From positions 1 to 34,732 of the forward strand of contig CALBDB010000002.1 of the NCBI GenBank assembly GCA_937927755.1: a stretch of DNA of 34,732 nucleotides. Direction: 5' to 3'. The translations under genes were made by a program, and so were the position numbers. The notes beneath the pieces are model-generated. The model ran no database searches. It was not told the origin of the DNA and saw nothing but the letters and a program-made list of their open reading frames with translations. Shown piece after piece: positions 26,064-28,549 of this stretch. The DNA comes from an uncultured Lysobacterales bacterium (GTDB lineage: Bacteria > Pseudomonadota > Gammaproteobacteria > Xanthomonadales > SZUA-36). Each line of letters opens with the position of its first letter. Position 1 is the stretch's first letter.

Positions 26064-27815
26064 ATGAAATTCCATACATTCGTAGTATCACTTTGTATAA
26101 CAACGCTTGCGGCCTGCGCCGTTGAGAAGAACGACGATGAACAGGTTGCTGCCAGCCCGGAGGGAGAGGTATTGATTGAAACCAGGGTGCGTGAATTAAC
26201 CGACAAGGATCCTGCTGACAATCGCCCTTTCGTTGCCATTGAAGCCCAGCAGGAGGAGCAGCATGTATCCGCAGACTACGTGGTCGCAGGCAAACACGCC
26301 CAACCGGGTCTGGCGACGGCTCACATTGTTCCGCACAATATCCGTCACGCGGTTGAACCCCTGTATCGTGAAAATTATCACCACACTGAAAGCCAGACTG
26401 TCATGCGCGTCAGTGAGTTTCCGGTTTCTACGTTTTCAATTGATGTTGATACCGGCGCCTACTCCAACATGCGCCGCTGGCTTAACCAGGGCCAATTGCC
26501 GCCTGAGGATGCAGTCAGGGTCGAAGAGTTTATCAACTATTTCAGCTATGACTACCCCGTGCCGGAAGACAGGCGAGTACCCTTCGAGGTCAATACGGAA
26601 ATCGCCCCGGCGCCATGGAACCGGGAAACACGCCTGTTGCGTATCGGCATCCGGGGTTACGAGGTTCCAAAGGCCGAGTTGCCTGCTTCGAACCTGGTGT
26701 TTTTGATTGATGTATCCGGCTCCATGAGTTCCCCCGACAAGCTGCCGTTATTGCAACAGGCACTGACCATGCTGGTCGGACAGCTTGATGCGCGTGACAG
26801 TATCAGCATGGTTGTCTACGCGGGCGCATCAGGTGTCGTGCTCCCTCCGACCAAAGGTGACCGGAAGGCGGATATCCTTGCCGCCCTGCAGCAATTGCAG
26901 GCAGGCGGGTCAACAAATGGCGCTGCCGGTATAACCCTTGCCTACCAGATGGCTCAGCAGAATTTTATTAAAAACGGAGTTAACCGTGTCATCCTCGCCA
27001 CTGACGGCGACTTCAATGTTGGCCTGGCCAGCACCGAAGAACTGATCGACCTTATCCAACGTAAGCGCAAGGCGGGTATCGCACTGACCACCTTGGGTTT
27101 TGGCAGTGGCAATTACAATGACCACCTGCTCGAGCAACTGGCGGATGAAGGCAACGGCAATCACGCTTACATCGACCGGCTCTCCGAGGCCCAGAAAGTC
27201 CTGGCAGATGAACTTTCAGCAACGCTGCTGACCATCGCCAAAGACGTCAAAATCCAGATCGAGTTTAACCCGGCCAGGGTTTCTGAGTATCGCCTGATCG
27301 GCTATGAAAACCGGATGCTCAATGAAGATGACTTCACCAACGACAAGGTCGATGCAGGTGAAATTGGCGCTGGGCACCGTGTTACCGCCCTCTACGAGAT
27401 CAGCCTTGCCGGCAGCGATGGTCAGCGCTTGCCGCCACGGCGTTACCCGTCGGGGAAGGAAATTACTGAACGTGGCGATGAGTCATTCAACAATGAGCTT
27501 GCTCACCTGCGTATTCGCTACAAATTGCCCGATGAAACGGTATCAAAGCTGATCGAAGCGCCCATAATGGACAGCGGTATCAACGCACAGGGTAGCGATA
27601 GCTTCAACTTCGCCGCATCGGTCGCCGCCTTTGGACAAAAGCTGCGCGGCGGTAAATACCTCGACGATTTCAGCTTTGACGATATCGAAAACCTAGCCCG
27701 CCAATCCAGGGGCAACGACCCGCACGGTTACCGGAGCGAGTTCATGCAACTGGTCAAGCTGGCAGGGACACTGGATCAAACATCCAATATTGCCCGGAAC
27801 GAGGCAAAAAACTGA
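26064..27815 (+). CDS. YfbK-like von Willebrand factor A domain lipoprotein
   Basis: 583 residues. The N-terminus MKFHTFVVSLCITTLAACAV is a lipoprotein signal with lipobox LAAC and acylated Cys18. A conserved N-terminal region (about 100-200: FSIDVDTGAYSNMRRWLNQG, VRVEEFINYF) precedes the VWA domain with its metal site DVSGSMS (DxSxS) and ILATDGDFNVG, then the YfbK C-terminal domain (DDFTNDKVDAGEIGAGH, LRIRYKLP, FAASVAAFGQKLRGG). AGGAG is ideally placed before the ATG. It is followed by ECF sigma and candidate anti-sigma genes, which suggests a role in envelope signalling or remodelling; the biochemical function is unknown. Confidence 0.92.
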   Translation: MKFHTFVVSLCITTLAACAVEKNDDEQVAASPEGEVLIETRVRELTDKDPADNRPFVAIEAQQEEQHVSADYVVAGKHAQPGLATAHIVPHNIRHAVEPLYRENYHHTESQTVMRVSEFPVSTFSIDVDTGAYSNMRRWLNQGQLPPEDAVRVEEFINYFSYDYPVPEDRRVPFEVNTEIAPAPWNRETRLLRIGIRGYEVPKAELPASNLVFLIDVSGSMSSPDKLPLLQQALTMLVGQLDARDSISMVVYAGASGVVLPPTKGDRKADILAALQQLQAGGSTNGAAGITLAYQMAQQNFIKNGVNRVILATDGDFNVGLASTEELIDLIQRKRKAGIALTTLGFGSGNYNDHLLEQLADEGNGNHAYIDRLSEAQKVLADELSATLLTIAKDVKIQIEFNPARVSEYRLIGYENRMLNEDDFTNDKVDAGEIGAGHRVTALYEISLAGSDGQRLPPRRYPSGKEITERGDESFNNELAHLRIRYKLPDETVSKLIEAPIMDSGINAQGSDSFNFAASVAAFGQKLRGGKYLDDFSFDDIENLARQSRGNDPHGYRSEFMQLVKLAGTLDQTSNIARNEAKN

Positions 27816-27837
27816 CGTCCGTGAGGGTTCGGATGGT

Positions 27838-27926
27838 GGTAGTTACTTATGAGACCGTCGCCAACAAGGATGTTGGCGGCCGAGCTTACAGGGAAGTACT
27901 CGCAGCGTGTCTGATAAGTAACTGCC
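27838..27926 (+). repeat. Structured intergenic element able to fold as a three-way junction
   Basis: An outer stem pairs AGTTACTTAT-g-AGAC (27841-27855) with GTCT-g-ATAAGTAACT (27909-27923), extended by three pairs including one G-U. Inside are two hairpins: CGCCAAC/GTTGGCG (27859-27865 with 27872-27878, perfect, 6-base loop) and CGAG-TAC/GTA-CTCG (27881-27889 with 27896-27902, one 2-base bulge, loop AGGGAA). It fills much of the 203-bp gap 27816-28018. The core ACAGGGAAGTACTCGCAGCG resembles a short intergenic repeat I recall from other gammaproteobacteria, but I cannot search. It could be a mobile palindromic repeat, an RNA processing site or a regulatory leader. Confidence 0.6.
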
Positions 27927-28018
27927 ACGGCCCGGACCCCGTGCACGGCCCTCGAATTTCTGGCTGTGCGCACTTCCCCCCACTTGGCGCGCTTATTCGA
28001 ATCGGCTACGCTGCCCAT

Positions 28019-28549
28019 ATGCGGGAATCCACCGACGAACAACTGATGAAGAGATACGCAGATGGTGATGCAAAGGCCTTCGATCAGCTTTATGACAGGC
28101 ATCGCGGGCCGCTATACCGCTACTTCAACCGGCAGGTGAGCGACGCGGCAACGGCCAATGACCTGTACCAGGGCGCCTGGGAGAAAATCATCAAGTCGCG
28201 GCGCAAGTACCGCCCCACCGCGCCATTCACCGCCTGGATGTACCAGATCGCCCACAATCATCTTGTCGACCACTACCGGCGTGTCCGCCCAGGCGGGGCC
28301 GTGGAAAATGACACATTGGCCGATGACCGGGCCAACCCGCAGCAGGATATTATTAATGACGAGAAAAAAGATAATTTGAGGAAAGGTATCATCGCCTTGC
28401 CGGCCGAGCAGCGAGATACGTTATTGCTAAAACTTGAAACCGGTCTCAAATTGGAGGACATTGCAATGGTGACCGGCGTTAGCAAGGAGACTGTAAAAAG
28501 CCGCTTGCGTTACGCGGTCAACAAACTGAAACAGGCCCTGATTGAATGA
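28019..28549 (+). CDS. ECF-type RNA polymerase sigma factor
   Basis: 176 residues from the ATG at 28019. Sigma region 2 is clear (FDQLYDRHRGPLYRYFNRQ, ANDLYQGAWEKI, PFTAWMYQIAHNHLVDHYRR), as is region 4 with its helix-turn-helix (LPAEQRDTLLLKL, KLEDIAMVTGVSKETVKSRLRYAVNKLK). The frame is open to 27821 upstream, but that stretch translates the structured element and has no sigma homology. No strong ribosome site is visible before the ATG. The next gene overlaps by ATGA, the usual sigma/anti-sigma arrangement. Target promoters are unknown; I found no clear autoregulatory promoter. Confidence 0.92.
   Translation: MRESTDEQLMKRYADGDAKAFDQLYDRHRGPLYRYFNRQVSDAATANDLYQGAWEKIIKSRRKYRPTAPFTAWMYQIAHNHLVDHYRRVRPGGAVENDTLADDRANPQQDIINDEKKDNLRKGIIALPAEQRDTLLLKLETGLKLEDIAMVTGVSKETVKSRLRYAVNKLKQALIE

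What the first reader, a model, noticed from the sequence alone, without database searches (positions are those of the whole stretch)
27838..27926. 89-nt three-way-junction element between the VWA and ECF sigma genes
A 14-bp outer stem with one G/G mismatch encloses two hairpins, one perfect. This is far more pairing than expected by chance in 89 bases. The second hairpin displays AGGGAA, a ribosome-site-like loop. The core recalls an intergenic repeat I have seen in other gammaproteobacteria, but its function is not known to me. It lies in the 5' region of the sigma gene, so it could also control read-through from the VWA gene.
Basis: partly seen in the sequence, partly recalled or inferred. 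Interest (0 to 1): 0.65.

Follow-up and report, generated by a model that had tools for sequence, protein, structure and literature searches.

The report
Mobile palindrome with paired CsrA-type loops
The element is one copy of a short self-complementary DNA repeat scattered through many gammaproteobacteria; its RNA would fold into a fork whose two tips look like docking sites for the global regulator CsrA, which joins repeat families that had been named separately.

Summary
The structure is real (z about -6.6) and larger than described: arms run to about 27825-27939. It is a dispersed repeat: 29 covariance-model matches in this genome at E<=0.1 and matches in 19 of 299 phylum genomes, all of the same class. 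Pairing is 92%, with 30 of 34 pairs changed on both sides. Both hairpin tips mostly keep C-[ANGGAN]-G, the CsrA/RsmA hexaloop: GGA in 257 (hairpin 1) and 265 (hairpin 2) of 268 copies. The family joins Yersinia YPAL/RU-2 (Rfam Ysr224, opposite strand) and, less firmly, Rfam TwoAYGGAY. CsrA binding by TwoAYGGAY was predicted in 2014 (PMC4333381) and is untested in what I could read. Copies show no orientation bias to genes (63 versus 59), often lie head to head (66 of 100 close pairs), come and go between related species, and change both arms together (8 both-sided, 1 one-sided). So it is a mobile palindrome with CsrA-like loops, not a fixed leader of this sigma gene: 3 of 10 genus genomes have it here, one on the other strand.

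The parts
27825..27855 (+).
   Evidence: RNA fold of 27810-27955 and of 27838-27926
27859..27878 (+). hairpin 1, perfect 8-bp stem CGCCAACA/TGTTGGCG; hexaloop reading C-[AAGGAT]-G at 27865-27872
   Evidence: family-wide loop counts
27882..27903 (+). hairpin 2 (GAGCTTAC-AGGGAA-GTACTCGC); hexaloop C-[AGGGAA]-G at 27889-27896
   Evidence: family-wide loop counts
27909..27939 (+). 3' arm of the long outer stem
26064..27815 (+). upstream gene: VWA/YfbK-type protein, whose stop codon (27813-27815) lies about 10 bases before the outermost arm
   Evidence: Pfam YfbK_C, vWF_A and VWA
28019..28549 (+). downstream gene: ECF sigma factor (the longer GTG start at 27821 would run through the element and is probably wrong)
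   Evidence: Pfam Sigma70_r2, Sigma70_r4 and Sigma70_ECF; orthologues align from 28019

Best explanation
It is one copy of a mobile, non-autonomous palindromic repeat of about 108 bp (two arms of about 20-30 bp around a core of about 65 nt), of the YPAL/RU-2 and TwoAYGGAY kind, inserted just behind the VWA stop codon. SHOWN: dispersed copies, presence and absence at the same place in related species, both arms changing together, frequent head-to-head pairs, and a three-way fold with covariation. INFERRED: when a copy is transcribed on its GGA strand (here, read-through from VWA towards the sigma gene) it folds into a fork whose two C-[ANGGAN]-G tips can be gripped by one CsrA/RsmA dimer. It would then act as a portable CsrA-binding 3' element that protects or marks the upstream RNA and adds to the cell's pool of CsrA sinks. 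CsrA binding would be the reason why the loops stay fixed while the stems drift. The repeat identity I hold at about 0.95; the confidence below is for the whole statement including CsrA.
For: Copies. Covariation: on a MAFFT alignment of 27 copies, 91.9% of cells paired (shuffled 65.7%), 30 of 34 pairs changed on both sides, covariation score 0.718 against 0.201, slid controls at most 0.149; one search agrees on 129 distinct rows, but that alignment is structure-fitted. Loops: in 268 distinct full-length copies CANGGANG stands in hairpin 1 of 217 and hairpin 2 of 261, GGA in 257 and 265. The first N takes all four bases. Shuffled cores give 0.7% and the antisense strand 1 and 5 of 268 (stem diversity). 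In 32 copies on loci brought in by the model rather than the pattern, hairpin 1 has CANGGANG in 29 and hairpin 2 in 31. The E. coli CsrA SELEX consensus is RUACARGGAUGU, mostly in six-base loops (PMC7652899, passages); 12 of 268 hairpin-2 copies match all twelve positions. RsmN and RsmA bind an AAGGAU hexaloop (PMC3791407, passages). All 19 R1-positive and all 27 RF01731-positive phylum genomes (37 distinct) carry CsrA, while 180 of 299 genomes do. Within the class 36 of 67 CsrA-positive genomes and 0 of 20 listed CsrA-negative ones have the repeat; by family 15 of 21 against 0 of 8, P 0.0007. TwoAYGGAY was predicted to bind CsrA from its motif (PMC4333381, passages).
Against: No orientation bias to the neighbouring genes: 30 same, 27 opposite among single copies in tandem regions; 63 and 59 overall. 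A selected cis RNA function should show one. Core flipping could explain this, but I saw only one case of an opposite core between similar arms (L232), and an independent insertion is not excluded there. The family named from Yersinia RNA, Ysr224, is the strand without GGA loops. In the own genome hairpin 1 is exact CANGGANG in only 8 of 22 full-length copies (GGA in 19), hairpin 2 in 20 of 22. Hairpin 1 stems exceed four pairs in 242 of 268 copies, whereas most SELEX ligands had four or fewer. CsrA is common in the lineages concerned, so co-occurrence is phylogenetically confounded; one of the 15 families (f28) rests on a sub-threshold RF01731 match. Hairpin 2 counts are partly circular, because the genome contigs pattern spelled that loop.
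Confidence: 0.5

Rival explanations
1. Purely a DNA-level mobile palindrome (REP/BIME- or MITE-like). The two hairpins and their loops are read as extruded single-stranded DNA by an unknown transposase supplied in trans; any RNA effect is incidental.
For: No orientation bias; 66 of 100 close neighbouring pairs head to head, as reported for many REP families (PMC3733652, passages). Insertions, deletions at short repeats, nested copies and independent insertions in the same intergenic regions. Both-sided arm changes with almost no one-sided intermediates (8 to 1) point to arm-to-arm correction or replacement by another copy, that is DNA processes. The YPAL review reports target duplications and targets at or beside dyad symmetry (PMC2229807, passages).
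Against: It does not predict why both loops should be the CsrA hexaloop with the two N positions free, nor the confinement to CsrA-bearing lineages in the sample. No transposase gene was recognised beside the arrays inspected; that was by eye on predicted protein starts of 14 loci, not a domain search.
Confidence: 0.35
2. A cis-regulatory leader of the ECF sigma gene or an attenuator between VWA and sigma.
For: Position between two co-directional genes, 79 bases from arm end to the sigma ATG.
Against: Found in 3 of 10 genus orthologues of this region, one on the other strand; copies elsewhere lie in both orientations to their neighbours and, in the 14 loci listed, beside varied genes.
Confidence: 0.05
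3. An intrinsic, perhaps bidirectional, transcription terminator.
For: Long stems at gene ends; of regions with a copy 29 of 98 are convergent, against 41 of 241 copy-free gaps of 60 bases or more. At two loci relatives have an ordinary hairpin in the same spot. Three Pseudomonas-type copies end in T runs.
Against: T tracts after the 3' arm in 5 of 274 and before the 5' arm in 12 of 274 copies, background 39 of 1096.
Confidence: 0.07

Closest known systems
YPAL / RU-2 of Yersinia (Rfam Ysr224, RF02770, is its other strand)
   Same: Same order of parts (arm, hairpin 1 with C-[AAGGAT]-G, GAGC, hairpin 2 with C-[ATGGAT]-G, GCGT, arm) in the sequence printed in PMC2759123 Table 1b. Local alignment of the window core to it 40 of 55 identical, score 45 against a shuffled maximum of 32. 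Intergenic, with filled and empty sites described in the review PMC2229807 (passages).
   Different: Different arms and hairpin 1 stem; the window copy scores only 19.5 bits with Ysr224 (gathering 70). YPAL was described in Yersinia and Erwinia. The original YPAL paper (De Gregorio 2006) was not held and was not read.
TwoAYGGAY RNA (Rfam RF01731, type Cis-reg)
   Same: [quoted passage not shown] R1 found Pseudomonas-type copies that pass the TwoAYGGAY gathering score on the same strand (60, 58.2, 52.4 against 43). An own-genome copy (C1:10272-10399; R1 90.3 bits) matches RF01731 full length at E 3.2e-4, below gathering. Also multi-copy, with several close pairs on opposite strands.
   Different: The window copy has AAGGAU and AGGGAA, not AYGGAY, and no RF01731 match at E<=10. 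R1 finds only 2 of 11 RF01731 loci tested. It is filed in Rfam as cis-regulatory, not as a mobile repeat.
REP/BIME palindromic repeats (GTAG- and CGTC-tagged)
   Same: Intergenic palindromes, mostly head-to-head when paired, between unidirectional and convergent genes (PMC3733652, passages).
   Different: About 108 bp with a three-way fold and two conserved GGA loops, against 20-40 bp hairpins with an unpaired tag.
CsrB/RsmY/RsmZ-type CsrA-sequestering sRNAs
   Same: GGA loop hairpins in pairs, CsrA as likely partner.
   Different: Dispersed mobile copies, mostly without T tails, instead of one dedicated sRNA gene. No CsrB or RsmZ match over threshold in 11 genomes searched; sub-threshold matches in 1 and 8 of them.

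Membership tests
YPAL/RU-2 (Ysr224) | sequence homology of the central core | tested here: met
   40 of 55 identical to RU-2, score 45 against shuffled maximum 32; R1 finds enterobacterial L200, which passes Ysr224 gathering at 82.4 bits
YPAL/RU-2 (Ysr224) | Rfam RF02770 gathering score of 70 bits | tested here: not met
   window copy 19.5 bits on the minus strand
YPAL/RU-2 (Ysr224) | mobility: filled and empty sites | tested here: met
   for relatives of the copy, orthologous loci with and without the element; clean target duplications were not resolved
TwoAYGGAY RF01731 | both terminal loops AYGGAY | tested here: not met
   window loops AAGGAU and AGGGAA; in the family the first N is T or C in 136 of 217 hairpin-1 and 124 of 261 hairpin-2 CANGGANG loops
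TwoAYGGAY RF01731 | Rfam gathering score of 43 bits | tested here: not met
   no match of the window copy at E<=10; own-genome sister copy 37.5 bits; Pseudomonas-type sisters 52-60 bits
CsrA/RsmA binding RNA | ANGGA(N) in a hairpin loop, in pairs | tested here: met
   consensus
CsrA/RsmA binding RNA | CsrA encoded by the host | tested here: met
   PF02599 match in G000, E 3.6e-24
CsrA/RsmA binding RNA | physical binding | not testable with these tools
   needs protein and RNA
REP (GTAG/CGTC-tagged) | single hairpin of 20-40 bp with an unpaired tag | tested here: not met
   three-way fold, median full length 108
intrinsic terminator | T tract after the stem | tested here: not met
   5 of 274 copies; none in the window sequence

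The most novel reading that the evidence does not exclude
A mobile DNA palindrome that spreads CsrA docking forks around gammaproteobacterial genomes and can flip its core between its own inverted arms, so that the transcript of one or the other strand carries the CsrA sites. It would be a dispersed, self-renewing CsrA sponge with a per-locus strand switch, and YPAL, Ysr224 and TwoAYGGAY would be its local forms.
Probability: 0.13. Interest if true: 0.85.

Novelty: new variant of a known kind. Interest (0 to 1): 0.56.

Why it matters
Several labels (YPAL/RU-2 repeats, Ysr224 'sRNA', probably TwoAYGGAY 'cis-reg RNA', and copies without an Rfam label in Xanthomonas, Stenotrophomonas, Marinobacter, Microbulbifer and this genome) appear to be one dispersed palindrome with two CsrA-type loops. 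If the loops bind CsrA, mobile DNA would be seeding and diluting a global regulator's targets across a class of bacteria. If they do not, a CsrA hexaloop conserved for DNA movement would itself need explaining. Either way the question is now testable with one gel shift. The nearly exclusive both-sided arm changes, at the two loci where I could count them, also warn that compensatory changes in such palindromes need not mean selection on RNA.

Tried and rejected
Rfam on the whole window: no match at gathering. Rfam sX9, which I suspected for Xanthomonas, lies elsewhere in L074. Plasmid and phage collections: no match to the window copy. E. coli genomes: 5 of 5426 with a partial match to the enterobacterial form, although PMC2847712 tabulates 3 YPAL copies for E. 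coli (passage); I did not resolve this. Terminator reading rejected for lack of T tails. Fixed leader of the sigma gene rejected. Arms as target palindromes considered and dropped: copies at two different loci in two genomes share a 17-base inner arm stretch, so that part of the arms travels with the core. No transposase was recognised by eye beside arrays; no domain search was run on those genes. CsrB and RsmZ models gave nothing over threshold in 11 genomes, so replacement of dedicated sponges by the repeats stays open.

Corrections and limits: one search's locus A count was out of register and is replaced. The loop counts (278 rows) held some copies twice with shifted ends; they are replaced (268 distinct copies of 90-101 letters out of 316 matched rows; nested, cut and identical rows dropped). 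Copy numbers are floors: one search scored 150 of 716 candidates, and searches scored at most 14 and 9 per genome with stricter filters. The orientation tally uses my own simple gene caller on 301 distinct copies, of which 238 were usable: 26 were called inside genes and 37 lacked a neighbour on one side; Xanthomonas is over-represented. After re-checking I lowered the novel case from 0.15 to 0.13, because the one apparent core flip could be an independent insertion.

Full report
OBSERVATION. The arms continue outward on both sides to about 27825 and 27939, so the whole element reaches from about 10 bases behind the VWA stop codon to 79 bases before the sigma ATG. The antisense strand also folds (z -5.43), as expected of a palindrome; only the sense strand shows GGA loops.

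COPIES. BLAST of the element found more copies in the own genome and in relatives (15 of 41 genomes had a match at E<=0.01). Of these hits I dropped duplicates, three chance-looking loci from outside the family (L023-L025) and a truncated one (L006) before aligning 27 copies. The covariance model R1 gives 29 matches in the own genome at E<=0.1, 26 of them at 42 bits or more (150 of 716 candidates scored), and matches in 19 of 299 genomes across the phylum, all of the same class (at most 14 scored per genome).

STRUCTURE. On the MAFFT alignment, which was not fitted to a structure, 91.9% of cells are paired, 30 of 34 pairs have both-sided changes, and the covariation score is 0.718 (shuffles 0.201; slid structures at most 0.149). 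The structure-fitted alignment of 129 distinct further rows agrees. Every helix has pairs that covary; the innermost junction pairs hardly vary.

LOOPS. In 268 distinct full-length copies, hairpin 1 holds CANGGANG in 217 and GGA in 257; hairpin 2 holds them in 261 and 265 (which replaces the 278-row counts). Hairpin 2 was partly selected by the scan pattern, hairpin 1 was not; in 32 copies on loci brought in by the model, the counts are 29 and 31. In the own genome hairpin 1 is weaker: CANGGANG in 8 and GGA in 19 of 22 copies, several with a loop one base shorter, while hairpin 2 has 20 and 22. The first free position takes all four bases, and the stem bases just outside hairpin 1 vary widely. 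Shuffled cores give 0.7%, and antisense 1 and 5 of 268. Distant copies of enterobacterial and Pseudomonas type keep both loops while arms and stems differ. The CsrA SELEX consensus and its six-base loops (PMC7652899, passages) and the ANGGAN recognition by RsmA/RsmN (PMC3791407, passages) match this closely, except that most hairpin 1 stems are longer than those of SELEX ligands (over four pairs in 242 of 268). The window copy has C-[AAGGAU]-G and C-[AGGGAA]-G.

DNA BEHAVIOUR. The VWA-sigma intergenic region of 10 genus genomes carries the element in 3: G000, G007 (core 58 of 63 identical, arms different) and G004 (core on the other strand). In another genus, locus A has it in six species. Five share orientation, and over the inner 26 pairs their arms show 4 both-sided and 0 one-sided variants. 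In the sixth (L232) the core lies on the other strand between similar but not identical arms: a flip, or another insertion. Locus B gives 4 both-sided and 1 one-sided. The G211 arm at locus A shares a 17-base stretch, including a variant not seen in its orthologues, with a copy at another locus in G176, so replacement by another copy is an alternative to arm-to-arm correction. Various relatives lack the element at these loci, have an ordinary hairpin in the same place, or show deletions at short repeats. Nested copies occur in the own genome (read from the folds). Close neighbouring copies are head to head in 66 of 100 pairs.

CONTEXT. With a simple gene caller, 238 usable copies lie in 122 tandem, 72 convergent and 44 divergent regions. 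In tandem regions orientation is 63 with and 59 against transcription (30 and 27 for single copies) (P 0.79). There is no T-tract enrichment. This counts against a cis RNA function that needs one strand, unless flipping randomises orientation.

CsrA LINK. PF02599 was found in 180 of 299 phylum genomes, including all 37 genomes positive with R1 (19) or with RF01731 at E<=0.01 (27, of which 19 over the gathering score). Within the class, 36 of 67 CsrA-positive genomes carry the repeat against 0 of 20 listed CsrA-negative ones; by family 15 of 21 against 0 of 8, P 0.0007. The class and family counts were made by hand from the listing, where 99 further negatives were not shown, so 20 is a minimum; one positive family (f28) rests on a sub-threshold match. 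Relatedness between families is not removed.

KNOWN FAMILIES. RU-2/YPAL of Yersinia is homologous in its core. Rfam Ysr224 is its other strand: L200, found by R1, passes Ysr224 gathering on the strand opposite to R1. Pseudomonas-type copies found by R1 pass TwoAYGGAY gathering on the same strand, and one own-genome copy matches RF01731 at 37.5 bits, below its threshold. But the window copy itself has no RF01731 match at E<=10, and R1 finds only 2 of 11 RF01731 loci tested, one of them a place R1 had already given. By plain sequence the window core and a TwoAYGGAY copy are barely above shuffles (31 against 29). So kinship with YPAL is firm; with TwoAYGGAY it is likely but rests on the models. 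PMC4333381 (passages) predicted that TwoAYGGAY binds CsrA and said that validation was needed. PMC2864571 (passage) rated it probably RNA and probably not cis-regulatory. I found no paper that joins TwoAYGGAY with YPAL or with mobile repeats in the searches, of which I saw listings and selected passages; the library lacks most subscription journals.

VERDICT. It is a real, mobile palindromic repeat spread over many lineages of one class, a new subfamily of the YPAL/TwoAYGGAY kind. CsrA binding is the best explanation for the loops but is unproven, and the lack of strand bias is the main result against it.

Noticed in passing
L121:4195-4953 and L131:3473-5226: Group II intron pieces within a few kilobases of a repeat copy (Shewanella gelidimarina about 100 bases away, Zobellella denitrificans about 2.6 kb away).
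   Followed up: no
L156, L161, L143 (contigs titled Klebsiella pneumoniae MAG): Repeat copies in contigs labelled Klebsiella pneumoniae metagenome bins; possibly mis-binned or mislabelled contigs.
   Followed up: no
G160: Nine CsrA-family matches in one repeat-rich genome, where the other listed genomes have one to three.
   Followed up: no
window 27821-28549: The longest ORF of the sigma gene starts upstream and runs through the element; copies elsewhere often lie in ORFs that look spurious, a likely source of false hypothetical proteins.
   Followed up: partly
L155:2491-3354: Array of six copies in strictly alternating orientation with a period of about 303 bases in Xanthomonas hortorum.
   Followed up: partly
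G000:C138:635-759: Sub-threshold PrrB_RsmZ match (29.4 bits, E 8.2e-5), a candidate CsrA sponge of this genome.
   Followed up: no
L218, L220, L223, L225 (orthologous VWA-sigma intergenic regions): Other genus members carry different large hairpins at the same spot, which looks like a hot spot for palindromes.
   Followed up: partly
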